A program made the translations under genes and the position numbers. A stretch of DNA of 64,000 nucleotides from Pseudoclavibacter helvolus (GTDB lineage: Bacteria > Actinomycetota > Actinomycetes > Actinomycetales > Microbacteriaceae): contig NZ_JACHWJ010000003.1 in NCBI RefSeq assembly GCF_014191305.1, forward strand, positions 372,001 to 436,000, in the 5' to 3' direction. The notes beneath the pieces are model-generated. The model ran no database searches, was not told the origin of the DNA, and worked only from the letters and a program-made list of their open reading frames with translations. Position 1 is the stretch's first letter; every line of letters begins with the position of its first letter. Of this stretch, positions 9,280 to 22,932 are shown in pieces.

Positions 9280-9290
9280 CGTGCGACGGC

Positions 9291-9296: not shown

Positions 9297-9302
9297 CATC
9301 GC

Positions 9303-9728: not shown

Positions 9729-9742
9729 CCAGCCACGTTTCG

Positions 9743-9781
9743 GGATGGCTTTCGCGCTTCGGGATGCGTTGCAAGCCATCC
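9743..9781 (+). terminator. Inverted repeat after the SRPBCC gene, possible terminator
   Basis: GGATGGCTT (9743-9751) pairs with AAGCCATCC (9773-9781) around a 21-base loop, starting 14 bases after the SRPBCC stop. The word TTCGGGATG also occurs twice here (9739 and 9758) and once inverted (9796). The rest of the interval up to the riboswitch at 9911 shows nothing else clear. Confidence 0.4.
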
Positions 9782-9910
9782 GCGTGTGTGTAACCCATCC
9801 CGAGATGATCGCGGCGACGGCGGCGGCGTATTCCCTGGGTGCGTTCGCTTGTCGCGGAGCGTCACGATGTCGCGCTTCCCGGGGACCTGGCGTAATCTGA
9901 CGGCAGAGTC

Positions 9911-10037
9911 CACGTGCTCCGGGGTCGGTGTAATTCCGAGCCGGCGGTTATAGTCCGCGACCTGCTCCCGCAAGGGAGTGGCTGATCTGGTGAAATTCCG
10001 GAACCGACGGTGAAAGTCCGGAAGGGAGGCGCACGTG
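9911..10037 (+). ncRNA. FMN riboswitch (RFN element)
   Basis: The aptamer is easy to recognise: P1 is CACGTGC (9911-9917) with GCACGTG (10031-10037). Between them are the conserved blocks GGTGTAATTCCGAGCCGGCGG, TAGTCCGCGAC, a variable stem-loop (CTCCCGCAAGGGAG), CTGATCTGGTGAAATTCC, and ACCGACGGTGAAAGTCCGG. FMN binding normally shuts off riboflavin genes. Here it precedes an ABC permease and a binding lipoprotein, which points to flavin uptake. Downstream hairpins at 10037-10060 and 10111-10134 are candidates for the expression platform. Confidence 0.95.
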
Positions 10038-10060
10038 ACGGCACGCCTTGGCGTACCGTC
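10037..10060 (+). promoter_or_regulatory. Hairpin overlapping riboswitch P1, possible expression platform
   Basis: GACGG-ACGCC pairs with GGCGT-CCGTC, ten pairs with one mismatch and a four-base loop. Its 5' base is the last base of the P1 stem, so formation of this hairpin and of P1 are close competitors or stack on each other. Confidence 0.45.
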
Positions 10061-10065
10061 AGCTC

Positions 10066-10137
10066 GTGGAACCCGCTGACCCGTTCGGCGAGCCCACGCG
10101 CCTCGTCATCCCCGGAGCTTTCACGAAAGCCGGGTAG
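10066..10137 (+). other. 23-codon leader ORF in frame with ribX, separated by TAG
   Basis: GTG at 10066 opens 23 codons (VEPADPFGEPTRLVIPGAFTKAG) that end in TAG at 10135-10137, immediately followed by the ATG of the permease in the same frame. A hairpin (CCCG-GCTTT 10111-10121 with AAAGC-CGGG 10126-10134) lies just before the stop. No ribosome site is visible before either start. It may be a leader peptide with reinitiation at TAGATG, or an old N-terminal extension cut off by an amber mutation. Confidence 0.35.
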
Positions 10138-10947
10138 ATGAACACGACGTCAGCACGCATCCTCGCACCGATGTCGGTGGCGGTAGTGGTGCTCGCTGTG
10201 TGGTGGCTCGTCACGGCTGCTGGCCTCATCTCGCCGCAGTTCCTGCCGGCCCCCGGCCAGCTCGCCGAGCGCTTCTGGCTCGACGTGACGAAGGGGCCCA
10301 TGCTGGCTCACGCCTGGGTGACGCTCTCTGCTGCCCTCCTCGGTAGCCTCCTCGCGATCGTCGTCGCCGTGCCGCTCGGCTACCTCATCGCCAGGCTTCC
10401 GTGGGTCGACGTCGCCGTGACCCCGTACGTCGCCGCATCCCAGGCAGTGCCGGCCATTGCGCTCGCCCCGCTGCTCGTGCTGTGGATCGGCTACGGCCTC
10501 GCCCCGACGGTCGTGCTGTGCGCCATCATGTCGTTCTTCCCGATGCTCGTCACCACCGTCCTCGGCGTGCGGCAGCTGCCGCAGGACGTCATCGAAGCCG
10601 GCCGCATTGACGGCGCCAACTGGTACCAGCTGCTGTGGTGGGTGGAGGGGCCGCTCGCCCTGCCGAGCGTGCTCGCCGGCATCCGGGCTGGCGTGACGCT
10701 CTCGATCACGGGCGCCGTCGTCGGCGAGTTCACGATGGGCGGCAGGGGACTCGGGATGCTCCTCACGCTCAACAGGGACGCCAACGACATCCCCGGCATC
10801 TTCTCGACCCTCCTCATGCTTGTCCTCCTCGCCGTGACGCTCTACATCCTCATGCGCCTGTTCCAGAACGCCGTCACCTGGAACGACGACGAACCCAAGT
10901 CGAAGCGGCGCGCCCGCGTGCTCGCCGACGAGCCCCTCCCCGCCTGA
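10138..10947 (+). CDS. ribX: ABC transporter permease, probable riboflavin importer
   Basis: 269 residues with about six membrane helices and the BPD_transp_1 coupling loop (EAGRIDGANWYQLLWWVEGPLALPSVLAGIRAG, around 150-180), which contacts the ATPase. The class is that of the SsuC/TauC/ThiX permeases. An FMN riboswitch controls it and a lipoprotein gene follows, which matches the RibXY flavin uptake system described by comparative genomics. The ATG directly follows an in-frame TAG. No nucleotide-binding subunit lies in the operon, so an ATPase encoded elsewhere must serve it. The symbol is assigned from the riboswitch and architecture, not from a search. Confidence 0.8.
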   Translation: MNTTSARILAPMSVAVVVLAVWWLVTAAGLISPQFLPAPGQLAERFWLDVTKGPMLAHAWVTLSAALLGSLLAIVVAVPLGYLIARLPWVDVAVTPYVAASQAVPAIALAPLLVLWIGYGLAPTVVLCAIMSFFPMLVTTVLGVRQLPQDVIEAGRIDGANWYQLLWWVEGPLALPSVLAGIRAGVTLSITGAVVGEFTMGGRGLGMLLTLNRDANDIPGIFSTLLMLVLLAVTLYILMRLFQNAVTWNDDEPKSKRRARVLADEPLPA

Positions 10948-10979
10948 CCCACACCTCATCTCTCGACCAGGAGACGCTC

Positions 10980-12047
10980 ATGAACACTCGCCACACCAGC
11001 TCCGGCCGCGGCTCACGCGGCTCGCGGGCATTGCGCTCCCTCATCGCGGCCGGTGCCGTGGCGGCCGTCGCCGTGCTCGCCGGCTGCTCGACCTCCGCCG
11101 ACGGCAACAGCACGGATGCGACGGCCCAGCCCGCGGGGGCCGTGACGATCGGCCTCACCTACACCCCGAACATCCAGTTCGTGCCGTTCTACGTCGCCGA
11201 GGCGAAGGGCTTCTTCGAGGACGAGGGCGTGGACGTCGAGCTGCGCCACCACGGCGAGGGCGAGGACCTCTTCGGGGCGCTCGCGAACGGCACGGAAGAC
11301 TTCGTGTACGCCGGCGGCGACGAGATCACGCAGGCTCGCGCCGCCGACATCCCGGTCACGTCGGTCGCGACGCTCTACAACACGTACCCGGCGACGCTCA
11401 TCGTGCCGGAAGACTCCGACATCAAGACCGCCGCGGATGCGCGCGGCAAGACGATCGGAACGCCCGGCCCCTACGGACAGACGTACTTTGCGCTCCTCTC
11501 GCTGCTGCAGAGCAACGGGCTGACGGCCGACGACGTGAAGATCGAGCACATCGGCTACACGCAGCAGGCGGCCCTCACGACGGGCGCCGTCGACGGCGTC
11601 ATGGGCTACATCAACAACGACGCCGTGCAGTTCGAGAAGGCGGGCTTCCCGGTGCGCACCATCGAGATCGCGCCCGCGGATGCGCCGACCCTCGTCGGCC
11701 CGTCGCTCGGAGTTGCCGACTCGATCATCGAAGGCGACGACGCGGCGATCACGCCAGTGCTCGAGGCGCTTGCCCTCGCGACGCAGTACGTGATCGACAA
11801 CCCGGAGGAGTCGATCGACATCGCCTCCGAGTACATCCCCACCCTCTACACGGACGAGGCGAAGAGCGACGCGCTCGCGACGCTCGAGGCGACCATCCCA
11901 TTCCTCTCGGCGCAGGACGGCCAGCCGCTCTTCACGAACGACGCCGAAGTCTGGGCAACGATGGCGACCTTCATGAACGAGCAGGACCTGCTCGAGAAGC
12001 CCCTCGAAGGCGACGCCTTCACGAACGCGTACGTGCCTCAGGGCTAG
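10980..12047 (+). CDS. ribY: Substrate-binding lipoprotein (NMT1/THI5-like), probable riboflavin binding
   Basis: 355 residues. Signal peptide with twin arginines upstream and a lipobox LAGCS that puts the lipidated Cys near residue 36. The mature domain has the NMT1/THI5-like periplasmic-binding pattern: LTYTPNIQFVPFYVAEAKGFFEDEGVDVELR, then YAGGDEITQARAADIPVTSV and GYTQQAALTTGAVDGVMGYIN. Ribosome site CAGGAGAC seven bases before the ATG. With the riboswitch-controlled permease it makes a flavin importer; thiamine precursors or other aromatic ligands are the alternative for this fold. Confidence 0.82.
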   Translation: MNTRHTSSGRGSRGSRALRSLIAAGAVAAVAVLAGCSTSADGNSTDATAQPAGAVTIGLTYTPNIQFVPFYVAEAKGFFEDEGVDVELRHHGEGEDLFGALANGTEDFVYAGGDEITQARAADIPVTSVATLYNTYPATLIVPEDSDIKTAADARGKTIGTPGPYGQTYFALLSLLQSNGLTADDVKIEHIGYTQQAALTTGAVDGVMGYINNDAVQFEKAGFPVRTIEIAPADAPTLVGPSLGVADSIIEGDDAAITPVLEALALATQYVIDNPEESIDIASEYIPTLYTDEAKSDALATLEATIPFLSAQDGQPLFTNDAEVWATMATFMNEQDLLEKPLEGDAFTNAYVPQG

Positions 12048-12072
12048 GCATGGCGGCGCTCGGCGCCAGACC

Positions 12073-12837
12073 TCACCGTCCCGGCGCGAAGAGTGAGTCA
12101 GAAGCACGTTCCTGTCGAAGGGAGCGTGCTTCTGGCTCATTCTTGCGCCGGGGATGAGGGGCCTGGGGATGCGGCGTCGGGGGACGGGCGTCAGAGGCCG
12201 AGGTGTCAGGGTCGCGCGCGGCCATCCGCGTCTGGATGGCCGCAGTGACGGGGCCCGTGAGCAGAAGGAGCAGCCAGGTGTAGCGCGCCGGGTCGGGGCC
12301 GAAGAGGTAGGCGACCGGGATCGAGAGCGCGAAGACGGCGGGAACCACGAACGTGAACGCCGAACGTCGACGCGCAGCCGCCGAGTCCTCCGTTAGCCCG
12401 CGGCGCACGGCGACCACCCAGATCATGTGCTGCGCAAGCGACGCGCAGATGATGCTCACGGCGTAGACGACCACCGGCAGAGGCTGCGTGTCGAGGGTCG
12501 CCTCGCTCATCGCCGCGGTCGTGAATGGCAGCACGACGACGAAGAACATGGCGACGATATTGGCGTTCAGGAGCGCCCCGTCGAGGGCCGACACCTGGCC
12601 CATGAGTCGATGGTTGACCTTCCAGAAGTTCGCGATCACGAAGAAGCTGATCGTGAACGCCAGCAGCTGGTCGAGTACCCCGGAGCCGGCGAGCGCATCC
12701 CAGCTCGCCCAGTGCTCCGCCGTCGGCGGCTCGATGCTGACGATGAGGAGCGTGATCGCGACCGCGAAGATCGCATCGAAGAACGTCAGCCCGCGATCGA
12801 ACTCCGTGGTGCCTCGTGCGTAGCTGCGTGAAGCCAT
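12073..12837 (-). CDS. TMEM175-family (DUF1211) membrane protein
   Basis: 254 residues with about six membrane helices. The first helix begins FDRGLTFFDAIFAVAITLLIVSIEPP, matching the RxxxFSDxxFAIAITLL signature of bacterial TMEM175 potassium channels, with Asp replacing Ser in the core motif. Further helices are at about 59-77, 90-110, 121-143, 163-180 and 188-206. The last 45 residues are hydrophilic and partly encoded by a terminator hairpin. The ATG at 12837 has GGAG eight bases upstream; an in-frame start at 12888 is less likely. Convergent with ribY. Confidence 0.78.
   Translation of the reverse strand: MASRSYARGTTEFDRGLTFFDAIFAVAITLLIVSIEPPTAEHWASWDALAGSGVLDQLLAFTISFFVIANFWKVNHRLMGQVSALDGALLNANIVAMFFVVVLPFTTAAMSEATLDTQPLPVVVYAVSIICASLAQHMIWVVAVRRGLTEDSAAARRRSAFTFVVPAVFALSIPVAYLFGPDPARYTWLLLLLTGPVTAAIQTRMAARDPDTSASDARPPTPHPQAPHPRRKNEPEARSLRQERASDSLFAPGR
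12083..12150. terminator. Long hairpin between convergent genes
   Basis: A stem of about 25 bp with a few mismatches (roughly 12083-12108 with 12124-12150) lies after ribY. It falls inside the 3' end of the convergent TMEM175-like gene, so it can act in both directions and also encodes that protein's charged tail. Confidence 0.6.
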
Positions 12838-13007
12838 GGGGGATGCTCCGTACTCGTGAGGGGGCGAGGTGCGGCGGGAAGTGCCCACGATGACCAGTTT
12901 CCATGATGAGGGAGTGAAATGCGCGGATCTGGAGGCTAGTGCTCCCCAAGGCGATTGGAACGGGCCAACCTCCTGCTAGCCTCACGCTCGGCGGAATCGA
13001 GGAGAAC

Positions 13008-13610
13008 ATGACTGGTCACCAGGTGGTAAACGCGGCGGGTGCCGCCGTTGGAGAAGCGAGCATCGCCGTGGAGGGGCACCGTGTGACGTCGTCGTCGCTC
13101 GATGCAGCCCTCGCTTGGGTTCAGGCACCGGATGCGGGCATCTCGGCGGAGGAGCGCAAGCGTGCCGAACGATCGATGCGTTTCCTGCGTGCTCGGCTGC
13201 GGAACCCGTATCCGAGGCAGAGAATCGTCGATATCCGATCAGTGGTACTTGCTGTTCCGGCAATTGCTCTGAGCGTCTACCTCGTCGTTCTCCTGGCCCT
13301 CGTGATTCGTGAGGCGCCGAGCGCCATCCCACCCGGGGCTACTAGGCAGTCCGTCCTGGAGGACGCGACAGGCACGTTCGTGTGGCCCCTCACGATCGCG
13401 CTCGCCTGCAGCCTGCTGTTGACGCTCGCAGTACCGCGCGCGCTCCGCGTGATTCTCGGCATCGTGGGAGCGTTCTGCCTGCTCTACCTCCTGATCATGC
13501 AGCCTGTCGCCTACGGGGCAGTCGATGCCGACGCCGGGTCAGCAGTCTTTGCGACCCTCGCTTTCGGCGTTCTCTTCATCGTGACCTGGGCGATCGGCGG
13601 TCGTCGATGA
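13008..13610 (+). CDS. Four-helix membrane protein, first gene of FtsK-like operon
   Basis: 200 residues. The N-terminal 75 residues are hydrophilic and mostly helical, and four predicted membrane helices follow at about 79-101, 124-142, 146-164 and 178-197, ending in GGRR. ATG with GAGGAG ribosome site. The stop overlaps the ATG of the FtsK-like ATPase (ATGA), so the two are made together. No family recognised. Because the ATPase itself has no membrane segment, this protein is the natural candidate for its membrane anchor or channel; that is inference from position and topology. Confidence 0.75.
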   Translation: MTGHQVVNAAGAAVGEASIAVEGHRVTSSSLDAALAWVQAPDAGISAEERKRAERSMRFLRARLRNPYPRQRIVDIRSVVLAVPAIALSVYLVVLLALVIREAPSAIPPGATRQSVLEDATGTFVWPLTIALACSLLLTLAVPRALRVILGIVGAFCLLYLLIMQPVAYGAVDADAGSAVFATLAFGVLFIVTWAIGGRR

Positions 13611-16291
13611 GCGCCTTCCCGCCCCTCTCGACCAAGCTACGCGACGACATGAAGGCGCTGCTCGCCGACGTCGACGCCTCCGCCCGTCACAGGCAGACAG
13701 AGAACGCCGACCGCCTTGCGGCCGCTGAGCGCCGTGAGCGGGACCAGGTGGCGGATCTTCGATCGCACCACCGGGCCGCGAATGCGATGGCGGACGCGGA
13801 GCAGCATCAGCGCAGCGATCGCGCGGTCGCGGCGTTGAGGCACGAACTGGAGAGCATCCCGGGTGCGCTGGGCGTGGTCGCGCGAACGTTCGACTTCGGT
13901 CTGCTTGACGTGCCGCCGCAGGGTGTCGCCATCGGAATCGCCAAGGGCGCCCCGGTGCTGATTCCCCTCTTCGGCGCACGGGGCCTCGTGCTCCGGGGCG
14001 ACAAGGAACACGCGACCGCCTTCGCCGAGGCGCTGTTCGGGCGCATCGTCGCCTCCGTGCCGCTGTCCTCGCTCCGCCTCACCGTGTTCGACCCTCAGGT
14101 CCGCGGCATCCTCGGCGCGTTCGCGGAACTGCGCGACCACGCCCAACGTGGCTCCTTCCCGCGTGCCTTCGTGAACGAGTACGACTTCCAGAAGCGACTC
14201 GAGCAGCTCACCGATTCGATGACGGTCATGGCAGAGCAGCTGCGGGTGGCCGGTGCGGGGAGTATCGCCGACATCTGGCGGCAGGCGACACCCGCACCGG
14301 TCCTCGACGTACTGGTCGTAGACCTCGTGCCCGGCTCGCTGCGCGAGCGCGCGGCGCTCGACCGGGTCGCGCACCGCGGGGCTGCCCTCGGCTTGCTTGC
14401 CGTGCGCATCGCTCAAACCGAGGATGTGTTGGATGGTGCAGAAGGCCAGGCGACGACCATCACGTTTGACGACCGCGGCAACGCGACCCTGCACCTCGCC
14501 GACGCTGAGCTGCCGTTCACGCCGCTGCCACCGCTCGACGCGGGGAACGCACGCGAAGTTGTGGCGGCGAGTATCCGCGAAGCAACGTCAAGCGCTGGAC
14601 CCGTCGTGCCGGCGGAGCGGCTGCTCCCGGCCGCCACGAACGTGTCGAGCGCGCACGGCATCGAAGTGGTCATCGGCGAGAGGCACGACGGGAAGCCGCT
14701 CACGGTTGGGCTCAGGAGCCAGAACCCGCCTACGCCGAACGCGCTCATCGGCGGTGCCGTCGGCCAGGGTAAGTCGAACCTGCTCCTCGCGCTGATCTAC
14801 GCGATCGCGGCCAAGTATCCGCCGCAGGAGGTCGAGATGTTGCTCCTCGACTTCAAGGAAGGGCTCGAGTTCCAGCGTTTCGCCGGCGACTCTGCCGAGG
14901 GCTGGCTGCCTCATGCGAAGGTCGTCGCACTCGAAAGCGACCGTCAGTTCGGGGTGGCCACACTTCGACACATCTCACGATTGAGGAGTGAGCGTTCGTC
15001 GCTGTTTAAGTCGGTCGGTGTGGCCAACTACGACGCGTACCGCGCGGCGGGCCACGAGCTGCCGCGTGTTGTGGTCGTCGTTGACGAGTTCCAAGTGTTG
15101 TTCGACGGCGAAGACGAACTTGCGTCCTCGTCGGTGCAGCTGCTCGACCAGATCGTGAGGCAGGGGCGCGTTGCGGGCATCCACATCGTGCTCGCCACAC
15201 AGACGCTGAGTGGCATCAGGAGTCTAGCGACGAGGCTCGACGGTATCCTCGCGCAGGTGTCCACGCGCATATCGCTCTGGAATCCGGAGAGCGAATCGCA
15301 GACCATTCTGAGCCCCGGCAACAGGGCGGCCGCCAAGTTGCGGTTCCGCGGAGAGGTTGTCGTGAACAGCGGCGGCGGACAGAACCCGGACGAGAACATC
15401 GTCGGCATGTCGACGTACGCCGAAGCCGCGTTTACCGCTCGCTTGCAGCGGCGACTGTGGGAGGAGCACGCTGGGACTGCCCGGCCACACGTCTTCATCG
15501 GCACTTCGTTTGCTGAGCCGCCGATGCACGCGCGGGATGCGGGTCCGCTTCGATGCGTTCAGCTAGGCGCCGCCGTCGATGTCTTCGGCACGTCCGTCGC
15601 GCATGTCTTCGGCAGCGACCCCATGAATGCGCTCGCCGTTGTCGGGTCGGATGTCACAGTCCGGGAGCAGCTTGTGCGCTCCAGCATCGAGAGCGCATTC
15701 CTGGGAGGCGCCTATCGGCGCGTCGTCGTTGTTGGCGGTCGCGAACTACTCGACTGGAGCCGCGGCGCGCTCGCGACCCTCACGACGCAGCATGCGCAGC
15801 TCGCGCAGCCCGAACTGACCACGGTCGACGTCGCAGACGCCGCGCGTTGGCTGTTCGAGTTCGAGTCGACCCTGCGTGGGAGCGGCACGCTTGTCGTCTT
15901 CTCCGACCTCCAGCGCGCTCCGGGACTGAGCGAGGCAGTGCTGGCGAACCCGGACGACCCGTTTTCGGAGCAGATCTCGGCGCAGCTGATTCTCCAACGG
16001 CTCGCCACGGGCCACTCGGCCGATTGCGACCTGGTGGTCAGCGCGCAGTCGTTCGCGTCTCTCGATCAGGTATTCGGTTACGCGCGAGATGGCAGCGGCG
16101 GGGTCGGTGGCTACGCGCTCGCGGAGGTGCCCCTCGCGGAGCTGAGGCAGCTGCTCGGCTACAACGCCGAAGCGCCCCAGGGGGAGCCTCGGTTCGTGTA
16201 CGTGCGCGCGGGGGCGACTGAAGCAGCTGTGGCCGTGCCCTACCGCCTTTTCGTGGAACGTCCCCTCGTTGAGCCTGGAGTGCGCACATGA
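13607..16291 (+). CDS. FtsK/SpoIIIE (EccC-like) ATPase
   Basis: 894 residues. N-terminal 80 residues are charged and likely coiled coil (RRERDQVADLRSHHRAANA). The FtsK/SpoIIIE motor follows: Walker A GGAVGQGKSN (382-391, Lys389), LLLDFKEGLEFQRFA, then Walker B RVVVVVDEFQVL with Asp493/Glu494, and RQGRVAGIHIVLATQTL. A second, degenerate P-loop-like domain occupies about 640-880 without a clear Walker A. There are no transmembrane helices and no gamma DNA-orienting domain, so it is neither a standard cell-division FtsK nor a full EccC. It could move proteins, as in type VII secretion, or DNA. It sits centrally in an operon of small helical proteins. Confidence 0.85.
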   Translation: MSAFPPLSTKLRDDMKALLADVDASARHRQTENADRLAAAERRERDQVADLRSHHRAANAMADAEQHQRSDRAVAALRHELESIPGALGVVARTFDFGLLDVPPQGVAIGIAKGAPVLIPLFGARGLVLRGDKEHATAFAEALFGRIVASVPLSSLRLTVFDPQVRGILGAFAELRDHAQRGSFPRAFVNEYDFQKRLEQLTDSMTVMAEQLRVAGAGSIADIWRQATPAPVLDVLVVDLVPGSLRERAALDRVAHRGAALGLLAVRIAQTEDVLDGAEGQATTITFDDRGNATLHLADAELPFTPLPPLDAGNAREVVAASIREATSSAGPVVPAERLLPAATNVSSAHGIEVVIGERHDGKPLTVGLRSQNPPTPNALIGGAVGQGKSNLLLALIYAIAAKYPPQEVEMLLLDFKEGLEFQRFAGDSAEGWLPHAKVVALESDRQFGVATLRHISRLRSERSSLFKSVGVANYDAYRAAGHELPRVVVVVDEFQVLFDGEDELASSSVQLLDQIVRQGRVAGIHIVLATQTLSGIRSLATRLDGILAQVSTRISLWNPESESQTILSPGNRAAAKLRFRGEVVVNSGGGQNPDENIVGMSTYAEAAFTARLQRRLWEEHAGTARPHVFIGTSFAEPPMHARDAGPLRCVQLGAAVDVFGTSVAHVFGSDPMNALAVVGSDVTVREQLVRSSIESAFLGGAYRRVVVVGGRELLDWSRGALATLTTQHAQLAQPELTTVDVADAARWLFEFESTLRGSGTLVVFSDLQRAPGLSEAVLANPDDPFSEQISAQLILQRLATGHSADCDLVVSAQSFASLDQVFGYARDGSGGVGGYALAEVPLAELRQLLGYNAEAPQGEPRFVYVRAGATEAAVAVPYRLFVERPLVEPGVRT

Positions 16292-16734
16292 ATTCGACGC
16301 GAGTGAACGAGGCACTGCGCGAGCTTGCGCACGCGGACGCGCAGCTGGCGCGCGCCCAGCGCCGACTCGAAGAGGAGCAGCGGCGCGCTCAGGCGGAAGC
16401 CGCTAGGGAACTGGCCACGGCACGCGCTGAGCATGACGCGGAGGCGTCAAGCGTTGCGAACATGCGCGACAGCGTCGGCTCGCTGGGAGCGACGCTGGGG
16501 GTCGAATCGTGGGATGCGCCCGGACGTGTGCGCGCCGCGCAGGACATTCACGCGCAGGAGCAAGCAATCCGTCAGCGGTGGGGCCACGCGTCTCTACTGG
16601 AGGCGGGTGAGCGAGCGGAAGCGGAAGAGCGCCGCTTGGCTGCGCCGAGGAAGGTCCTCACGTGGACCTGGCTCGGCCTGGCAGTGGTGGGCATGATCAC
16701 GCTGCACGTCCTCCCATCCCTCGTTCTCGCGTGA
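16288..16734 (+). CDS. Coiled-coil protein with C-terminal membrane anchor
   Basis: 148 residues. Residues about 5-60 are a charged heptad-like helix (Ala/Glu/Arg-rich), 80-120 a second helix, and 123-147 a single transmembrane helix, so the bulk faces the cytoplasm. The ATG overlaps the ATPase stop (ATGA). No family recognised. The tail-anchored coiled coil could tether the ATPase or organise the assembly at the membrane. Confidence 0.7.
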   Translation: MNSTRVNEALRELAHADAQLARAQRRLEEEQRRAQAEAARELATARAEHDAEASSVANMRDSVGSLGATLGVESWDAPGRVRAAQDIHAQEQAIRQRWGHASLLEAGERAEAEERRLAAPRKVLTWTWLGLAVVGMITLHVLPSLVLA

Positions 16735-16777
16735 CCTACGCACACCCATTTGTATGACCGAACCTCGGAGATAGGCC

Positions 16778-17041
16778 ATGGCCTCACAGCTCACTCAGCT
16801 CAAGTCGCAGATCGACGCGCTCTCGCAGGAGACCCGCAGGACCGGGGCGAGCCTGACAGGTTTCCAGAACACGTTCCGATCGCAGGTCACCGCGGTCGAG
16901 CAGGCGATCGGAGGCTCGACGCAGCGCAAAGACAAGGAGGTCGTCAACAGCCTGCAGGATGCGGCGCGCAAAGTGCAGGAAGCAACGGCGGCGCTGGAGC
17001 GTGCCGCGCAGATCAGCCGCGAGTACGCGGCGAGCCTATAG
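16778..17041 (+). CDS. Small helical-hairpin protein, WXG100-sized
   Basis: 87 residues, nearly all helical, with a break at about residues 45-48 (IGGST) separating two amphipathic helices. Size and hairpin form match ESAT-6/WXG100 secretion substrates, but the central W-x-G is missing (GG instead), so membership is not shown. GGAG seven bases before the ATG. The 43-base gap upstream is the only sizeable gap in the operon. Confidence 0.65.
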   Translation: MASQLTQLKSQIDALSQETRRTGASLTGFQNTFRSQVTAVEQAIGGSTQRKDKEVVNSLQDAARKVQEATAALERAAQISREYAASL

Positions 17042-17048
17042 GTCGAGC

Positions 17049-17432
17049 ATGTCGACCGAACATGCTCTGATGGCGCGCATCGCAGAGATTGACGATTCTC
17101 TGGCGGGGATGCGCAGGGCACAAGGCGCAGCAAACTCGTGCCTTGCGGACGGACGCTCGCTCGGCTCGGGCGCCCGCGGCGTCGCCGCATCCGCGCGCGC
17201 ACTCGTGGCGGGCTCGGCGACGGGCGTTGACACCAGACTGGCGCGCTCGCTCGGTGCGACGGAGGCCAACGCGAGGGCCTTTGTTGCCGTCCTTGAGCGC
17301 GCGCTCGCTGACCTGCACGGCGCGGCGCGGCGCCTCGAAGCCGAGCAGGCGGATTGCCGTCGCGAGCTCGAACGGCTGCGGGAGTTGGAACGACAGCGCG
17401 CGATCGCAGCGCAGGCGATGAGGAAGTTCTGA
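17049..17432 (+). CDS. Helical protein of unknown function
   Basis: 127 residues, Ala/Arg/Leu-rich and predicted helical throughout, with a coiled-coil-like C-terminal third (ARRLEAEQADCRRELERLREL). No signal peptide, membrane helix or recognised motif. Starts eight bases after the previous stop and its own stop shares one base with the next ATG (TGATG), so the order is fixed and translation is coupled. Confidence 0.62.
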   Translation: MSTEHALMARIAEIDDSLAGMRRAQGAANSCLADGRSLGSGARGVAASARALVAGSATGVDTRLARSLGATEANARAFVAVLERALADLHGAARRLEAEQADCRRELERLRELERQRAIAAQAMRKF

Positions 17433-17680
17433 TGAGCGAACTCAAGCGCCTGAGCCTAGCCGTGCAGCTGCTCAGCGGATCCTGCGGGCGCCTCGCAAAC
17501 GACCGAACCGGAGTAACTTCTGCGCTCTCGAGCGCGGCAACCGCCATCGACGCGACGCCAGAAGCGGCTTCGGCGCAGGCGGCACTTGTTGACGCGGTTC
17601 GTCTTTGGCAGACCATGTCGGCGGATGCGCTGGCGTCGTCGCAAGAGGCAGCGAGGTTCGCGGCCGGATTGGCGGGGTGA
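17432..17680 (+). CDS. Small helical protein, WXG100-sized
   Basis: 82 residues of helical character with a short break near DATPEAAS (41-48). It has the dimensions of a WXG100 protein but no W-x-G. One-base overlap with the preceding gene. Unrecognised family; probably a partner or substrate of the ATPase, by position. Confidence 0.6.
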   Translation: MSELKRLSLAVQLLSGSCGRLANDRTGVTSALSSAATAIDATPEAASAQAALVDAVRLWQTMSADALASSQEAARFAAGLAG

Positions 17681-17684
17681 CCTG

Positions 17685-18317
17685 GTGAACGACAACAACA
17701 CGTGGAGGCTCCCGGAACCTGCTGGCGCAGCGATTGGCTTGCCCACCGCTGAGGAGATCGTGGTGAGCGTCGGTGAGTACCTGGGCACGCTCCCGTACTC
17801 GGCGCCCGAAGAGGCGTTCGAAACCGTTGCGACCTTCATGCGTGCAGGCTCGCTCATCCGGCTCGGGCCCGGAACCGCCGAGATCCTCGCCCACTGCCGT
17901 GTGGTGCGGACAGGGGCGGAGATCGTTGCGCTCCTCGAGAGCGAGCGCAGCGTCGCGACCCATGCCGACTGGATGCAGCTGGTGGAGGCTGGGTTGGTGC
18001 GATCGGGGTCGCCCGAAACCGTCGCCGATTGGCTCGACGACTGTGTGGTGCGCCCTTCGGGGCGCAGCAGGGGTCTCAAGGGTGAAGGGCTTGGCATCGA
18101 GCGCGGGGATGGCCAGGTGTTTGCTGTGAGCGGGGTCTACTACTGGTTCTGGCTGTACGCGCGGACCGGGCAGAGCATCCGCGAGGTGCGTCGATTTCTG
18201 ACCCAGCAGGCCCACGTGGACGCGGCAAGTGACGCCGATGTCGCGGGCACGGTGCTGCACATGCTGCTGCACGGGCTCGGCCGGCTCGACCTGAGTGCGG
18301 ACGCACCGGCGACGTGA
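17685..18317 (+). CDS. Hypothetical protein of FtsK-like operon
   Basis: 210 residues, soluble, mixed alpha/beta. Starts GTG (VNDNNTWRLPEPAG) four bases after the upstream stop; its own stop overlaps the next GTG (GTGA). A segment around 140-165 (GQVFAVSGVYYWFWLYARTG) is aromatic-rich and the C-terminus is helical. I do not recognise it. The conserved-looking core and tight packing argue it is a genuine component of the operon. Confidence 0.68.
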   Translation: MNDNNTWRLPEPAGAAIGLPTAEEIVVSVGEYLGTLPYSAPEEAFETVATFMRAGSLIRLGPGTAEILAHCRVVRTGAEIVALLESERSVATHADWMQLVEAGLVRSGSPETVADWLDDCVVRPSGRSRGLKGEGLGIERGDGQVFAVSGVYYWFWLYARTGQSIREVRRFLTQQAHVDAASDADVAGTVLHMLLHGLGRLDLSADAPAT

Positions 18318-19144
18318 CCGGTGCGCAGGCGTCGGGATCCGTGTCCTCGGGCGGTGAAGGCCGGGCTGCACGCGACCTGATCAAGAAGCTTGCGGGAGTA
18401 GGCGCGCGCATCGACGGCTTCCTTGTCGTGCCCTTGGAAGCTTCGAAGTCCCTCAAGGAAACCCTCGGTGACGGCACGCCGGCATTTGGGCTTAGTGAGG
18501 CGCTCATCACGGCGGCGATCGCGGTGCCGAAGGGCGTCGTGGGGGCCTTGAACGCCGCCGAGGACACGATGAAGGTCGTCGACGCGTGGAACAGCGCGCC
18601 AGCAGGCACTTCCAGGGGTAGGGCGGCTCTGGCGGCCAGCTCATCGCTCCTGAACGACCTGAGCGCCGTGGCTTCAGGCGTCGCGTCCGTGACGCCCCTG
18701 TTCGCGCCGACAGTGACCGTTCCGCTGATGGTTGCGGCGACGACGATGACACTCGCGGGCGGACTCATCAAGGGGTTCACGGCAGCTCCGCCGCGCTCCG
18801 CAAGCACGGAAGGGCGTCAATCGGCGACGAGGTCGATTTCGAACGCGGGGGGCCCGGCTGCGGCTCCTCCATCGGGGCCGATCCGCAGCGTTCGAGATCT
18901 CGACAAGCGCCTCGGGGAACTCGTGGCCGCGCTCAAGGTCGGGCGCGCCCAGCTTGTGGAGCTCATGACCGGACGGATCAAGCCGCTTGGAGCGTCCGTC
19001 GACGCGTATCTGCAGGGCTCGTCACGCTCGTCGTATCGCCAGGCGACTCGGTCGGTTGAGGAGGCGACGGAGGCCGTCATTGCGAGCGCAAGGGCACTCG
19101 ACCAAGCGCGTGTCGACGTGGAGAAGTATCGAAGCGCCCTCTGA
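18314..19144 (+). CDS. Large helical protein with hydrophobic centre, end of FtsK-like operon
   Basis: 276 residues. Middle part (about 60-155) is weakly hydrophobic and Ala/Val/Thr-rich (ASGVASVTPLFAPTVTVPLM), then a disordered linker (158-195), and a helical C-terminal domain (195-276). This is the general shape of large helical type VII substrates or of membrane-active proteins, but no LXG, PPE or toxin motif is visible. GTG overlaps the upstream stop. It is the last gene of the operon; no immunity gene follows. Confidence 0.62.
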   Translation: MTGAQASGSVSSGGEGRAARDLIKKLAGVGARIDGFLVVPLEASKSLKETLGDGTPAFGLSEALITAAIAVPKGVVGALNAAEDTMKVVDAWNSAPAGTSRGRAALAASSSLLNDLSAVASGVASVTPLFAPTVTVPLMVAATTMTLAGGLIKGFTAAPPRSASTEGRQSATRSISNAGGPAAAPPSGPIRSVRDLDKRLGELVAALKVGRAQLVELMTGRIKPLGASVDAYLQGSSRSSYRQATRSVEEATEAVIASARALDQARVDVEKYRSAL

Positions 19145-19187
19145 GCTCATCTACCGTCGGAGCTCATCTAACGGGTGAGCTCATCGA
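19143..19187. repeat. Three copies of GAGCTCATC
   Basis: The nine-base word GAGCTCATC occurs three times within 45 bases (about 19143, 19160 and 19177), just after the operon's last stop and before the convergent acetyltransferase. The word contains a SacI palindrome. It could be slippage debris or a protein-binding array. Confidence 0.5.
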
Positions 19188-19213
19188 CGGTGCGCACAGT
19201 CTTGTCTCCTCAG

Positions 19214-19792
19214 CTAGCCGAGAGTCCGGATGACCTTCGCAGGGTTGCCAACCGCGACGACGTTCGCGGGGAGGTCCTTCGTGACGACGGCGCCCGCACC
19301 GACGACCGTGTTCTCGCCGATCGTGACGCCAGGGCAGACGATGACGCCGCCGCCGAGCCACACGTTGTCGCCGAGCGTGATCGGCTCGCCCGCCTCGTAG
19401 CCCGCGCGTCGCGGCTCGGGGTCGAGCGGATGCGTCGGCGTCAGCAGCTGCACGTTCGGCCCGATCTGGCAGTGCGCCCCGATCGTGATGGGCGTGACGT
19501 CGAGGGCCACGAGCCCGACGTTCACAAACGTGCCGTCGCCGATCGTGATGTTCGAGCCGTAATCAACGTAGAGCGGCGCCTTCACGGCGACGTCCTTGCC
19601 GAGGTCGCCGATGAGGTCGGCGAGGATCTCGGATGCACGCTCCCCGTCGACCGGGTACGTCGCGTTGAACTCAGCCTGCAGCCGGATCGCGCGCTGCGAC
19701 CCCTCCGAAAGCTCGGCATCGTCCGCGTGATAGAGGTCACCCGCGAGCATCCGCTGCTTCATCGTGCGGCCATCGTCGAGGTTCAGCGTCAT
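19214..19792 (-). CDS. Sugar O-acetyltransferase (maltose/galactoside type)
   Basis: 192 residues, full length for the Maa/LacA/NodL group. N-terminal Mac domain (KQRMLAGDLYHADDAEL...), then left-handed beta-helix hexapeptide repeats with the catalytic His in LLTPTHPLDPEPR and the ITLGDNVWLGGGVIVCPGVTIGENTVVGAGAVVTKD run. It transfers acetyl from acetyl-CoA to a sugar hydroxyl; the true substrate is often unknown. Divergent from the DNA methyltransferase. Confidence 0.92.
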   Translation of the reverse strand: MTLNLDDGRTMKQRMLAGDLYHADDAELSEGSQRAIRLQAEFNATYPVDGERASEILADLIGDLGKDVAVKAPLYVDYGSNITIGDGTFVNVGLVALDVTPITIGAHCQIGPNVQLLTPTHPLDPEPRRAGYEAGEPITLGDNVWLGGGVIVCPGVTIGENTVVGAGAVVTKDLPANVVAVGNPAKVIRTLG

Positions 19793-19834
19793 GGCACAAA
19801 ACCCTAGCTTGCACCTCAGATGGCCGAGTCACGT

Positions 19835-19840
19835 TAACCT
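19835..19840 (+). promoter_or_regulatory. -10 element of a leaderless promoter (TAACCT)
   Basis: TAACCT, six bases, then the GTG of the methyltransferase at 19847; a TTGCAC about 20 bases further upstream may be the -35. Confidence 0.5.
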
Positions 19841-19846
19841 CGACAC

Positions 19847-20851
19847 GTGACCTCGCTGTGGAACGCCGCCAGCCCCGACCTCGTGGTGCACGGCGACAAC
19901 CTCGACGCCATGCGTCGCCTCCCCGACGGTGCCTTCCAGGTCATCTACCTCGACCCGCCCTTCAACACCGGCAAGCAACAGACGCGACAGTCGGTGAAGG
20001 TGAAGCGGCAGTCGCCCGTCGAAGAATCGGTCGAGGCCGCCGAGCTGGGTGAGGCGCTCGCGCACGACGTGCCGCCGGCGGACACTGACGCTCCAGCATC
20101 CACACCTCTCACCCGCACCGGCTTCCAGGGGCGCAGCTACGAACACACCCTGGGCGAGCTGTCGGCGTTCAACGACGAGTTCGCCGACTACTGGGGGTTC
20201 CTCGAGCCTCGGCTCGTGGAGGCGTGGCGCCTCCTCGACCAGACCGGCACCCTCTACCTGCACCTCGACTACCGGGAATCGCACTACGCGAAGGTCGTGC
20301 TCGACGCGCTCGTGGGGCGGGACAAGTTCCTCAACGAGATCATCTGGGCGTACGACTACGGGGCGCGCACCTCGAAGCGGTGGCCGGCGAAGCACGACAC
20401 GATCCTCGTCTACGTGAAAGACCCGAAGCGGTACCACTTCGACGCCGCCGAGGTCGACCGGGAACCGTACATGGCGCCCGGCCTCGTGACCGAGGAGAAG
20501 CGCGAACGCGGGAAGCTGCCGACCGACGTCTGGTGGCACACCATCGTGTCGCCGACCGGCAAGGAGCGCACCGGCTACGCGACGCAGAAGCCGGCGGGCC
20601 TGCTGCGGCGCATGATCCGGGCCTCGAGCCGCGAGGGGGACTGGGTGGCCGACTTCTTCGGCGGCTCCGGCACGACGGCGGCCGTCGCGCGCGAGACCGG
20701 GCGCCGATTCGTGACCGTGGACGCGTCCGTGGATGCGCTGCGCACCATGCGGGGGCGCCTCGGCCCCGAGGGCGTCGAGTACCGCAAGCTCACGAAGGAC
20801 GGCACGCGGCTGCTGTCGGCGGCACCAAAACGGGCCAGGCCGAGCCGCTGA
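19847..20851 (+). CDS. Site-specific DNA methyltransferase, beta class
   Basis: 334 residues. DPPF (36-39) is the catalytic motif IV and comes before the AdoMet-binding DFFGGSGTTAA block (about 270), the order of beta-class N6-adenine or N4-cytosine enzymes. TLYLHLDYRESHYAKVVLD and WAYDYGARTSKRWPAKHDTIL fill the positions usual in this family, and YATQKPAGLLRRMI precedes motif I. No restriction endonuclease or specificity gene is adjacent, so it is a solitary methylase, perhaps regulatory or housekeeping. The gene's 3' end forms half of a terminator. Leaderless GTG start. Confidence 0.9.
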   Translation: MTSLWNAASPDLVVHGDNLDAMRRLPDGAFQVIYLDPPFNTGKQQTRQSVKVKRQSPVEESVEAAELGEALAHDVPPADTDAPASTPLTRTGFQGRSYEHTLGELSAFNDEFADYWGFLEPRLVEAWRLLDQTGTLYLHLDYRESHYAKVVLDALVGRDKFLNEIIWAYDYGARTSKRWPAKHDTILVYVKDPKRYHFDAAEVDREPYMAPGLVTEEKRERGKLPTDVWWHTIVSPTGKERTGYATQKPAGLLRRMIRASSREGDWVADFFGGSGTTAAVARETGRRFVTVDASVDALRTMRGRLGPEGVEYRKLTKDGTRLLSAAPKRARPSR

Positions 20852-20875
20852 GTCGCGGCGCTGCCTGGCCCGTTT
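20828..20875 (+). terminator. Hairpin terminator overlapping the methyltransferase stop
   Basis: AAACGGGCCAGGC (20828-20840) pairs perfectly with GCCTGGCCCGTTT (20863-20875); an inner GCCGC/GCGGC stem extends it. The methyltransferase stop codon is in the inner part. The A-run before and T-run after make it work in either direction. Confidence 0.75.
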
Positions 20876-20920
20876 CGGGAGACCCGTGAGGGCTCCGGGT
20901 TGGCTCGTGACGGCTTCGGG

Positions 20921-21712
20921 CTAGCGGGGCTGCCCGTAGTTCGTCGAAGAAGGGGCGTCGCTCTCATCAGGAGTGGAGTACGGGTCCGACTGGGCCGACT
21001 CCGTCTGCTGCGAAGGGGCCGAGGGCTGCGCCGAATACTGGTTCGGTGCGCTGTACTGGCCCGGAGCCTGGTACTGCCCAGGGGTCTGGTATTGGCCCGG
21101 AGTCTGGGGCTGTGCGGGTGCCTGGGGCTGCGCGGGCGCCTGGTAGGGAGCGGCGCTCGGCTGCTGTCCGTAGGGCTGGGCTGGCGGCTGCTGGTCGTGG
21201 GGCTGCTGGCCGTAGCCCTGCTGCTGGCCGTAGCCCTGCTGCTGGCCGTAGGCCTGAGCCGGTGCGACGTACTGTCCTGTCCCGTCGAAGCGAGCTCCCT
21301 GCTGCACGGACGGCAGGCACGCGAACACGATGAGGGCGATCGGTCCGAGGAACGGCACGAGGCCGAGGAACGCGAAGAAGCCGGAGAAGTTCGCGTCGTG
21401 GAGGCGGCGCACCGTGAGCGAGATCGATGGCAGGAGCAGCGCGAGGTTGACGAGCAGGCTGAGGAGGCCGAACAGGACGCCGCCGATCGCGAGGCCCCTG
21501 CTGTCGGACGCGTCGAAGCCCATCGAGATCGCGTTGAAGACGATCGTGACTCCTGCGAGGGCCAAGGCGACCCACCAGTACTCGCTGCGGCTCGCCCGCC
21601 CGCGGTAGACAAACGCCTTCTTTACGAAGCGCGTGATGGCCACGGGGAAGGGCGCCCCGTAGTACGGCTGGTCGAGTGCTGGCTGGCTAGCTGGAAGCTG
21701 TCCGTAGCTCAT
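20921..21712 (-). CDS. DUF805 membrane protein with Gln/Pro/Tyr-rich tail
   Basis: 263 residues. DUF805 core (about 20-140): AFVYRGRASRSEYWWVALA, three or four membrane helices, and LTVRRLHDANFSGFFAFL, the RRLHD motif being diagnostic. The tail (145-263) is low-complexity, with YGQQQG repeats followed by APAQPQ and PGQYQ repeats, probably cytoplasmic and disordered. Such tails in this family can mediate clustering. Role unknown. Confidence 0.85.
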   Translation of the reverse strand: MSYGQLPASQPALDQPYYGAPFPVAITRFVKKAFVYRGRASRSEYWWVALALAGVTIVFNAISMGFDASDSRGLAIGGVLFGLLSLLVNLALLLPSISLTVRRLHDANFSGFFAFLGLVPFLGPIALIVFACLPSVQQGARFDGTGQYVAPAQAYGQQQGYGQQQGYGQQPHDQQPPAQPYGQQPSAAPYQAPAQPQAPAQPQTPGQYQTPGQYQAPGQYSAPNQYSAQPSAPSQQTESAQSDPYSTPDESDAPSSTNYGQPR

Positions 21713-21752
21713 GTGTTCCTCTGTGCTCGATCGAATGGTGCAACGGCAAACC

Positions 21753-22931
21753 CTATTGCAGAGCAGGTGGGCGTGTAAGGGAGGAGACTTTCGAGGTGAC
21801 GTCGGCGAGCGCCTCGGCGACCCCTTCGAGGTCCACCGAAGTGGTGGATGCTCCCCACGTGAACCGCAACGCAGTTCGCGCGTCGTCCTCCGCGATGCCG
21901 AGCGCGAGGAGCACGTGGGACGGCTCGTCGTGCCCGGCCGCGCACGCCGCTCCGGCAGACGCGAGCACGCCGCGCTGCTCGAGCTCGAGGAGCACCGTTT
22001 CGCCGTTCACACCTGGCAGCACAAACGAGGCATGCCGGGGCAGGCGAGCCGATGGGTGGCCCGTGAGGCGTGCATCCGGGATGCGCGCGAGCACGTCCGC
22101 GATGAAGGCGTCGCGGGCGCTCCCCGGCAGCGGCTGCTCCCGGGCCGGCTGCTCTTGTTGCGCCAGCCGTTCCGCCTCGGCGAGCCGCAGGGCCACTGCG
22201 CACGCCACCGCGAACGCGACGTTCTCCGTGCCGGAGCGGCGCCCTCGTTCTTGCCCGCCGCCGTGGATGAGCGGCTCGAGCGGGAGCCGCGCGCGCACCG
22301 CAAGAACCCCGACGCCCTTCGGCGCGCCGAGCTTGTGGCCAGACACGCTGAGCGCATCCACGCCGGTTGCCGCCATCGACAGGTCGAGCGAGCCGGCTGC
22401 CTGGATCGCGTCAGCGTGAAAGGGGACCCCGCGGGCGTGGGCGACGGCTGCGAGCGCCGGCGCATCCTGCACCGTGCCGACCTCGTTGTTCGCCGTCGAC
22501 AGCGAGACGAGCGTCGTGTCGTCGCGGAGAGCCGCCGCGAGCGCTTCCTCCGTGACCAGGCCACGCGCATCCACCTCGACGAACGTCACCTCGAAGCCGT
22601 GGAGTCGCGCCAGGTAGTCGACGGATGCGAGCACCGACTCGTGCTCGATTCGGCTCGTCACGAGGTGCCGCCCGCGCGGGTTGCCGAGGGCGATGCCCTT
22701 GATCGCGAGGTTGTTCGCCTCGGTGCCTCCCGAGGTGAAGATCACCTCGGAGGCGCGGCAGCCGAGCGCCGCCGCCACGCTCTTGCGGGCATCGGCGAGC
22801 GCGGCCGCCGCCTGCTCGCCGAGGCCGTGCGTGCTCGACGGGTTGCCGAAGGATGCGGTCAGGTACGGCCAGGCCGCGGCGAGCGCCTCCTCCCTCACGG
22901 GCGAGGTCGCGGCGTTGTCGAGGTGGAGCAT
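21753..22931 (-). CDS. Cysteine desulfurase (NifS/IscS type), last gene of nad operon
   Basis: 392 residues. PLP lysine in SVSGHKLGAPKGVG, cofactor His in IEHESV, SGGTEANNLAIKG near the N-terminus, and the catalytic Cys in ASAGAACAAG. It removes sulfur from cysteine for Fe-S assembly. The position directly behind nadC, one base after its stop, suggests it supplies the 4Fe-4S cluster of NadA, as seen for nifS genes in other nad operons. Confidence 0.92.
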   Translation of the reverse strand: MLHLDNAATSPVREEALAAAWPYLTASFGNPSSTHGLGEQAAAALADARKSVAAALGCRASEVIFTSGGTEANNLAIKGIALGNPRGRHLVTSRIEHESVLASVDYLARLHGFEVTFVEVDARGLVTEEALAAALRDDTTLVSLSTANNEVGTVQDAPALAAVAHARGVPFHADAIQAAGSLDLSMAATGVDALSVSGHKLGAPKGVGVLAVRARLPLEPLIHGGGQERGRRSGTENVAFAVACAVALRLAEAERLAQQEQPAREQPLPGSARDAFIADVLARIPDARLTGHPSARLPRHASFVLPGVNGETVLLELEQRGVLASAGAACAAGHDEPSHVLLALGIAEDDARTALRFTWGASTTSVDLEGVAEALADVTSKVSSLTRPPALQ

Positions 22932-22932
22932 G

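What the first reader, a model, noticed from the sequence alone, without database searches (positions are those of the whole stretch)
13008..19144. Eight-gene operon around a soluble FtsK/EccC-type ATPase: possible undescribed translocation system
Seen: eight consecutive genes, nearly all with ATGA/GTGA or one-base overlaps, comprising a four-helix membrane protein, an 894-residue FtsK/SpoIIIE ATPase with one complete (K389, D493/E494) and one degenerate motor domain, a coiled coil with a C-terminal membrane anchor, three small all-helical proteins (87, 127 and 82 residues), a 210-residue unknown and a 276-residue large helical protein. Known: in type VII secretion an FtsK-family ATPase (EccC/EssC) exports WXG100 helical hairpins. 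Inference: the set looks like a stripped-down relative, lacking EccB, EccD, EccE, mycosin, FHA domains and canonical W-x-G, with the membrane parts on separate proteins. It could move proteins, or DNA.
Basis: partly seen in the sequence, partly recalled or inferred. Interest (0 to 1): 0.78.

Follow-up and report, generated by a model that had tools for sequence, protein, structure and literature searches.

The report
Mobile minimal type-VII-like export operon
A small mobile gene cluster encodes a soluble motor related to the type VII secretion ATPase plus hairpin-shaped small proteins and membrane anchors; such 'mobile type VII systems' were predicted in 2012, and this one belongs to an actinobacterial branch whose hairpins lack the hallmark tryptophan turn.

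Summary
The eight genes are real and lie in a 6.35-kb insert that four congeners lack, so they travel as a block. The 894-residue ATPase has an N-terminal coiled coil and three FtsK/EccC-like domains, only the middle one with Walker motifs; its nearest solved relative is EccC, ahead of FtsK. This is the ATPase type that Zhang et al. (2012) called mobile versions of T7SS, also seen in CoCoNuT defence loci (Bell 2024). So the kind is not undescribed. What looks new is the branch: 43 actinobacterial ATPases, 29 with a detected hairpin without the W-x-G/W-x-D turn, none with the W-x-D hairpin of the other branches. 32 of 39 untruncated members encode a membrane protein right after the ATPase. In the window D is a clear hairpin; E, F and the end of H are probable divergent copies. 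In two relatives an F-like region is fused to a nuclease and a probable ADP-ribosyltransferase, which points to toxin export. Best reading: a minimal type-VII-like protein (toxin) exporter. Kinship is well supported; secretion is inferred, and an intracellular conflict role is not excluded. A and G remain unidentified.

The parts
12867..19212 (.). Inserted stretch of about 6.35 kb absent from four congeners (boundaries within about 15 nt)
   Evidence: homology to L109-L112 ends at window 12854-12866 and resumes at 19213-19227; in the congeners the two aligned flanks lie -16 (overlap) to 34 nt apart
13008..13610 (+). A: 200-aa membrane protein, N-terminal ~75 residues without hydrophobic helix, then four hydrophobic helices; no family
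13607..16291 (+). B: 894-aa soluble FtsK/EccC-like ATPase; coiled coil 9-82, degenerate ATPase domain ~95-340, active domain ~351-600 (Walker A 383-390, Walker B D493/E494), degenerate domain ~650-880
16288..16734 (+). C: coiled-coil-like protein with one C-terminal membrane helix; positional counterpart of the membrane protein that follows the ATPase in relatives
   Evidence: sequence similarity to the 10 relatives compared is marginal (10.2 bits, 12 of 2000 shuffles as high)
16778..17041 (+). D: 87-aa helical hairpin (helices 2-43 and 50-86, turn IGGSTQ), core partner of the ATPase
   Evidence: (95 bits to a profile of six relatives, E=1e-30 for a set of eight proteins)
17049..17432 (+). E: 127-aa, probable second hairpin of the D type (G-S-A-T-G-V-D at the turn)
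   Evidence: 10.8 bits to the D profile, 1 of 2000 shuffles as high; 0.7 bits to the F-type profile, 370 of 2000 as high
17432..17680 (+). F: 82-aa, best matched by the N-terminal region of relatives' larger, partly toxin-bearing proteins
   Evidence: 12.0 bits end to end, 1 of 2000 shuffles as high; 4.0 bits to the D profile, 118 of 2000 as high
17685..18317 (+). G: 210-aa protein without detected relatives
18314..19144 (+). H: 276-aa protein, hydrophobic middle (about 110-155) and a C-terminal D-type hairpin (about 192-273); candidate cargo
   Evidence: (C-terminal 91 residues 14.4 bits to the D profile, 0 of 2000 shuffles as high; 8.7 bits to the F-type profile, 7 of 2000 as high)

Best explanation
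A mobile, minimal type-VII-like protein export module. B forms a cytoplasmic ring whose single active domain drives translocation; in place of the transmembrane domains of EccC/EssC it is held at the membrane by C (a tail anchor whose coiled coil could pair with that of B) and perhaps by A. The hairpins D, E and F act as co-secreted partners or recognition adaptors, as WXG100 proteins do in type VII secretion, and H, which carries a hydrophobic middle and its own C-terminal hairpin, is the most likely cargo; G may be its partner (chaperone or immunity protein). Shown: the genes, the ATPase architecture (as a model and by motifs), kinship with EccC, the hairpin prediction for D, the recurring gene set and the insertion. 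Probable: the hairpin kinship of E, F and the H C-terminus. Inferred: ring, membrane docking, export, and the roles of A, C, F, G and H.
For: EccC is the top relative by profile and Foldseek. The 41 ATPases of A1 and A2 (12+30, the window counted once) each have exactly one GxxxxGK[ST], in the middle domain. D belongs to a small-protein family found beside the ATPase. 54 of 66 loci with 2.5 kb on both sides have a 66-102-aa gene in the ATPase operon; 53 of 65 ATPases against 46 of 128 other genes have one within three genes on the same strand. In the other branches the partner is a WXG100: 26 of 29 scanned match Pfam WXG100 at E<=1e-3 (the 29 were picked by a W-x-D motif, see Tried and rejected), nearest solved H. 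pylori HP0062 and then EsxB. A membrane gene directly follows the ATPase in 32 of 39 untruncated members of the window's branch. In relatives an N-terminal F-like region is fused to Endonuclea_NS_2 (L029, 3.3e-16, above cut-off) and to an ADP-ribosyltransferase-like region (L031, XopAI 7e-8, below curated cut-offs); a Helicobacter plasmid has annotated HNH endonuclease and SMI1/KNR4 genes two to three genes upstream of the ATPase. The operon is an insert.
Against: No experiment. No EccB, EccD, EccE or mycosin family in the eight proteins; the pore is unidentified. D lacks W-x-G and the (recalled) YxxxD/E signal; its Pfam WXG100 score is 14.3 bits against a cut-off of 27.3. Of the 22 small proteins of A3, 8 match WXG100 at E<=0.1 (best 0.0042) but 9 match Apolipoprotein (best 0.0013), as coiled coils do. 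The D-type and W-x-D-type profiles do not align significantly (probability 3.3%), and the A3 profile's best PDB match is a designed coiled coil (0.0006) ahead of ESAT-6 (0.003). Of the 12 flanked loci without a 66-102-aa operon gene, eight (L043, L044, L052, L053, L073, L092, L095, L099) have no D-profile match either, so the ATPase may stand without a hairpin. E and F matches are weak, and each was tried against two profiles. G and H have no match in the other 296 genomes of the order searched or in plasmids, so cargo roles are guesses.
Confidence: 0.6

Rival explanations
1. Intracellular conflict system: the ATPase and hairpins regulate or deliver effectors inside the cell (abortive infection or phage defence) and nothing is exported.
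For: ATPase relatives sit inside CoCoNuT type III-A defence operons (Bell 2024 passages; Caballeronia L012/L108 has two VWA genes, PP2C, kinase and CARF genes around it), and near Hsp70, DnaJ-TPR and GrpE or TerD genes; B has no transmembrane helix at the usual cut-off; it came in as a block, as islands do.
Against: PADLOC gives only FtsK-core matches for B and weak coiled-coil-like ones for C and D, none for A, E, F, G, H; F-like regions fused to a nuclease and a probable ADP-ribosyltransferase, and a recurring membrane gene, are more like export systems.
Confidence: 0.22
2. Adaptor of the host's own ESX: the soluble ATPase and hairpins feed cargo into the canonical type VII system that the same genome seems to carry.
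For: The genome has an ESX-like locus: a 1329-aa FtsK-type protein with two N-terminal membrane helices, a 458-aa many-helix membrane protein and two small genes of 115 and 102 aa (identified by eye and by the FtsK match).
Against: The family also lives in Planctomycetota, Chloroflexota and Pseudomonadota, most of which are not known for ESX systems (recalled, not tested here), so it should be able to work alone.
Confidence: 0.1
3. DNA translocation or conjugation: B moves DNA.
For: The active domain also resembles FtsK and the conjugation protein TcpA; by VIA-align the FtsK motor (Z 30.8) is tied with EccC (Z 31.1).
Against: EccC is clearly closer by profile and Foldseek and aligns over more residues (484 against 272); no relaxase, FtsK gamma or transmembrane domain found.
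Confidence: 0.04
4. Degraded or incomplete copy of such a system without function.
For: Shorter gene set than some close relatives (no AAA ATPase, no 580-590-aa membrane protein, no chaperones); F stops about where relatives' proteins continue into a second domain; G and H without known relatives.
Against: All eight frames are open and tightly packed, and the active site of B is intact.
Confidence: 0.08

Closest known systems
'Mobile versions of T7SS' with solo WXG and a YueA-like ATPase of three HerA/FtsK domains, only the middle active (Zhang et al. 2012, PMC3482391, footnote to Table 1 seen as a passage; Anantharaman et al. 2012 is not held, and is known to me here only through its citation)
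   Same: Three FtsK-like domains with one active in the middle, small hairpin partner, mobile
   Different: That footnote does not list actinobacteria; the window branch has hairpins without the W turn, in several copies, a separate membrane anchor, and A, G, H
EssC-like ATPase with two WXG100 proteins in type III-A CoCoNuTs (Bell et al. 2024, PMC11090510, passages)
   Same: No transmembrane domains, N-terminal coiled coil, three ATPase domains with only D2 active; the Caballeronia ATPase in such a locus is homologous to B (tblastn 2e-37)
   Different: No VWA, kinase, phosphatase, McrB/McrC-like or CARF family in the eight window proteins
H. pylori HP0062/HP0066, called a 'WXG100 secretion system' (PMC4978471, passages); HP0062 crystal structure reviewed in PMC3397514 (passages)
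   Same: FtsK-type ATPase plus small hairpin; HP0062 is the nearest solved structure of the family's W-x-D partner and has WRD at the bend
   Different: Partner of the window has no W; different accessory genes. The review suggests a chaperone or adaptor role for HP0062 and leaves its function open
Canonical T7SSa/EccC and T7SSb/EssC; T7SSc-j (Garrett et al. 2024, PMC11217815, abstract, part 1 of 3 of the results and passages)
   Same: EccC/EssC-type ATPase with small helical hairpins
   Different: ATPase without transmembrane or FHA domains; no EccB/D/E, mycosin or YukD family in the operon; in the parts seen no subtype with a soluble ATPase is described

Membership tests
Mobile T7SS version (Zhang 2012) | ATPase with three FtsK/HerA domains, only the middle one active | tested here: met
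   Three domains in the model; single Walker A, in the middle domain, in each of the 41 sequences
Mobile T7SS version (Zhang 2012) | Linked small WXG domain protein | tested here: inconclusive
   D is a hairpin in the right place but has no W, scores below the WXG100 cut-off, and its profile does not align with the W-x-D profile
Mobile T7SS version (Zhang 2012) | Mobile | tested here: met
   Insert absent from four congeners with both flanks kept; at E<=1e-40 only the own genome and one other of 299 family genomes match, and that other ATPase (L022) belongs to the W-x-D side of the tree
Canonical type VII secretion (T7SSa/b) | Membrane-bound EccC/EssC | tested here: not met
   No transmembrane helix in B at the usual hydropathy cut-off; one borderline stretch at 106 at a lower cut-off, a strand region in the model
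Canonical type VII secretion (T7SSa/b) | EccB/EccD/EccE/mycosin or EssA/EssB/EsaA partners in the cluster | tested here: not met
   No such family among the eight proteins
Canonical type VII secretion (T7SSa/b) | WXG100 substrate with W-x-G turn and YxxxD/E signal (motifs recalled) | tested here: not met
   D turn IGGSTQ and C-terminus REYAASL; H ends EKYRSAL, F ends ARFAAGLAG
CoCoNuT type III-A | VWA/PP2C/kinase triad and McrB/McrC-like genes around the ATPase | tested here: not met
   No such family among the eight proteins
FtsK DNA translocase / conjugation coupling ATPase | Transmembrane N-terminus and gamma domain, or a relaxase alongside | tested here: not met
   None found; EccC closer than FtsK or TcpA
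Protein secretion system | ATPase-dependent appearance of a substrate outside the cytoplasm | not testable with these tools
   Needs the bench

The most novel reading that the evidence does not exclude
The actinobacterial branch is a separate subtype of type-VII-like export in which the motor is fully soluble and docked on the membrane by a separate anchor protein, and in which an expanded set of hairpins without the W turn (stand-alone, and fused to cargo at either end) has replaced WXG100 as the export tag: a type VII machine without EccB/D/E and without WXG.
Probability: 0.35. Interest if true: 0.75.

Novelty: new variant of a known kind. Interest (0 to 1): 0.52.

Why it matters
This ATPase family occurs in at least four phyla and turns up in defence islands, on plasmids and beside nuclease and probable ADP-ribosyltransferase proteins, yet what I found about its function is prediction (searches; the one experimental result met is the crystal structure of HP0062). 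If it exports proteins it would be among the smallest type-VII-like machines and would ask how hairpin cargo crosses the membrane without the EccB/D/E complex. The window offers a compact eight-gene insert with an empty site in congeners, a natural plus/minus pair for testing.

Tried and rejected
DNA translocase or conjugation: set aside on profile and Foldseek ranking, although by VIA-align Z the FtsK motor (30.8) is tied with EccC (31.1). The Foldseek match to EccC has a low whole-chain TM-score (0.37) and a large rmsd (15.6), as expected if the domains are turned against each other. Known defence family: the PADLOC hits to B (mad8, SspH, HerA, DndH) cover the FtsK core only; C and D have weak JetC/ZorA/LmuB hits that look like coiled-coil noise. 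G as a relative of the 203-aa gene in the same place in L038: looked alike by eye, hhalign probability 0.9%, dropped. H as a full-length relative of the 437-aa L038 protein: BLASTP E=4.1, dropped; they share layout and a C-terminal hairpin match only. Foldseek with the D model gives nothing below E=0.1 and mixes EsxE, CFP-10 and EsxB with unrelated coiled coils, so it is not counted. D profile against W-x-D profile: no significant match. Promoters, terminators: not above chance; one RNA family in 8000-24000, outside the operon. Phage records: matches lie within residues 341-617 of B in the 18 records listed. Repeats at the ends of the insert: no long direct repeat; a short three-copy 17-nt tandem at 19142-19191.

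Rows picked or dropped: the W-x-D set A4 came from 32 small proteins chosen by the motif W[RKNQGS]D and 80-95 aa; I left out four of them (second hits in L067, L074, L093 and the one in L021) and added L012, giving 29, so 26 of 29 is not a blind count. The ten membrane-protein relatives were chosen from the close loci. An earlier thought that the turn I-G-G-S marks the whole branch fails: a GG[ST] anywhere in a D-type frame is found in 15 of 29 D-labelled loci.

Limits: gene calls in relatives come from my own simple caller; one locus (L041) was miscalled in the first version. The D label in the tree uses an iterated profile at E<1e-3 anywhere in a locus, with the window and six loci as seeds; the W-x-D label is a motif on operon genes, with L012 and L018 set by hand. 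The 43-row branch has support 94/92, just under the star, and is a clade only if the root lies outside it.

Full report
The observation. The eight genes are present with intact frames at the stated coordinates. Four of the seven junctions overlap by 1 or 4 nt and the others are gaps of 4, 7 and 43 nt. Pfam and NCBIfam give one family above its cut-off for the whole set, FtsK_SpoIIIE in B (80.2 bits, cut-off 24); NCBIfam's best for B is EccCa at 95.7 bits, far below its equivalog cut-off of 509. A, C, E, F, G and H have no family above cut-off; D has sub-threshold hits, among them WXG100 (14.3 of 27.3 bits in Pfam, 15.8 of 44.85 in NCBIfam).

It is one unit. Ten genomes of the genus were searched, the own among them. 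In four of the nine others the two flanking genes, a TMEM175-like membrane gene (name recalled) and a sugar O-acetyltransferase-like gene (by eye), are neighbours, the aligned flanks lying -16 (overlap) to 34 nt apart; in the other five the first gene gave no match at E<=1e-20. In the window the same flanks enclose about 6.35 kb, 12867 to 19212, which holds A to H. No recombinase family among the eight proteins and no long repeats at the ends were seen. At E<=1e-40 ATPase B matches in 2 of 299 family genomes, the own and one whose ATPase lies elsewhere in the tree (L022); at E<=1e-30 in 8 of 396 phylum genomes, own included. The patchy distribution favours gain over loss by the others; this is inference.

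The motor. An AlphaFold2 model of B from 30 homologues (pLDDT 81.9, pTM 0.79) shows a long coiled coil (9-82) and three RecA-like domains. Only the middle one has Walker A (GAVGQGKS, 383-390) and Walker B (D493 E494); each of the 41 sequences in the alignments A1 and A2 has exactly one GxxxxGK[ST], in that place.

The small proteins. A profile from six relatives' small proteins, window left out, finds D at 95 bits and, weakly, H (C-terminus) and E. Against 2000 shuffles each, with that profile: D 95.0 bits (0 as high), H C-terminal 91 residues 14.4 (0), E 10.8 (1), F 4.0 (118). With a second profile made from the N-terminal regions of eight relatives' proteins: D 29.9 (0), F 12.0 (1), H C-terminus 8.7 (7), E 0.7 (370). 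E and F are thus probable, not certain. D is predicted as a two-helix hairpin with the turn at 44-49, I-G-G-S-T-Q, where WXG100 proteins have W-x-G (pLDDT 89.6). The family profile's PDB matches include ESAT-6 in register (0.003) but a designed coiled coil is better (0.0006); 8 of 22 members match Pfam WXG100 at E<=0.1 and 9 match Apolipoprotein; Foldseek is unspecific.

Relatives. The ATPase operon has a 66-102-aa gene in 54 of 66 loci with enough flank; four of the other 12 (L026, L027, L058, L102) have a D-type match in the locus, eight do not. In a tree of the active domain with three outgroup rows all 29 D-labelled loci fall in one group of 43 rows (the other 14 unlabelled, support 94/92); every row of the group with a named organism is from Actinomycetota (the Rhodococcus plasmid included) and the rest are from the window's phylum. 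All 39 W-x-D loci fall outside it, six of these also from Actinomycetota; none has both labels. Label changes number 17 against a shuffled mean of 45.8, as low in 0 of 200 shuffles, though near-copies help that. The W-x-D partners are WXG100: 26 of 29 scanned match Pfam at E<=1e-3 (set picked by motif) and their profile finds H. pylori HP0062 (2.6e-17 and 5.5e-17) and EsxB/EsxA. The D-type and W-x-D-type profiles do not align significantly, so I call D WXG100-like, not WXG100. GG[ST] occurs in a D-type frame in 15 of the 29 D loci, so the window's turn motif is not general in the branch.

The membrane. B has no transmembrane helix at the usual hydropathy cut-off. In 32 of 39 untruncated members of the 43-row group the next gene encodes a membrane protein; in the ten close relatives looked at, a protein of 172-212 aa with one C-terminal helix. 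C has that layout and place; its sequence similarity to the ten is marginal (12 of 2000 shuffles as high).

Cargo. In some relatives the operon ends with larger proteins whose N-terminal region went into the F-type profile. L029 (Gardnerella) has Endonuclea_NS_2 behind it (60.1 bits, cut-off 27), followed by a 139-aa gene without family. L031 (Microlunatus) has an ADP-ribosyltransferase-like region (XopAI 7e-8 but 32 of 300 bits; Pfam 21.5 of 23.4 bits, so below cut-offs). L034 and L011 share, by eye, an unidentified C-terminal region, each followed by a 131- or 134-aa gene. A Helicobacter plasmid carries an annotated HNH endonuclease and an SMI1/KNR4 gene (an immunity family, recalled) between a hairpin gene and the ATPase. 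This is the strongest hint at toxin export. In the window no toxin domain was recognised; H, with a hydrophobic middle and a C-terminal hairpin, is the likeliest cargo. G and H match only themselves in 297 genomes of the order, own included, and nothing in plasmids.

What is known. Zhang et al. [quoted passage not shown] Bell et al. 2024 describe the CoCoNuT-associated version, with N-terminal coiled coil and no transmembrane domains, suggest defensive protein secretion by a different mechanism, and cite Anantharaman 2012 for stand-alone versions (passages). The H. pylori pan-genome paper names a 'WXG100 secretion system' (passages), and a review describes the crystal structure of its hairpin HP0062, a dimer with WRD at the bend, encoded near an FtsK/SpoIIIE-domain protein, function open (passages). 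Garrett et al. 2024 list T7SSc-j; in the parts I saw none has a soluble ATPase. My searches brought up no test of transport and, in the listings and passages seen, no description of the actinobacterial branch without the W turn; the library holds only open-licence papers, so this is a weak negative.

Verdict. New variant of a known, predicted kind. Family placement of the ATPase is about 0.85 likely; export as the function about 0.6; the roles of A and G are open.

Noticed in passing
window 9911-10037 (+): FMN riboswitch (Rfam RF00050, 94.7 bits) just upstream of a transporter-permease-like gene at 10138.
   Followed up: no
G000:C5:288000-307000 (L023): The same genome carries an ESX-like locus: 1329-aa FtsK-type protein with two N-terminal membrane helices, a 458-aa many-helix membrane protein and two divergent small genes of 115 and 102 aa.
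   Followed up: partly
window 17678-17690: F stops about where relatives' proteins run on into a second domain, and G starts 4 nt later in another frame.
   Followed up: no
L029:19774-21006: Gardnerella: F-like N-terminus fused to a DNA/RNA non-specific endonuclease, followed by a 139-aa gene in the immunity position.
   Followed up: partly
L034:13607-14840 and L011:11689-12960: Two actinobacterial proteins share an F-type N-terminus and an unidentified C-terminal region, each with a small gene behind it: a candidate toxin and immunity pair.
   Followed up: partly
L044, L055, L073, L092, L095: Glycomyces ATPases of this family sit beside a 211-230-aa protein with three hydrophobic helices and 163-183-aa and 55-aa genes, with no hairpin gene found: the ATPase may have another job there.
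   Followed up: no
L019, L020: Operons with W-N-D hairpins also hold genes (154, 326-327 and 385 aa) that look by eye like ubiquitin-pathway proteins (E2-like, JAB-like); not tested.
   Followed up: no
window 19142-19191: Three 17-nt tandem copies around GAGCTCATC at the right end of the insert, starting in the stop codon of H.
   Followed up: no
window 19847-20851: DNA methyltransferase-like gene (by eye) just downstream of the insert, inside the flank shared with the congeners up to about 20334-20418.
   Followed up: no
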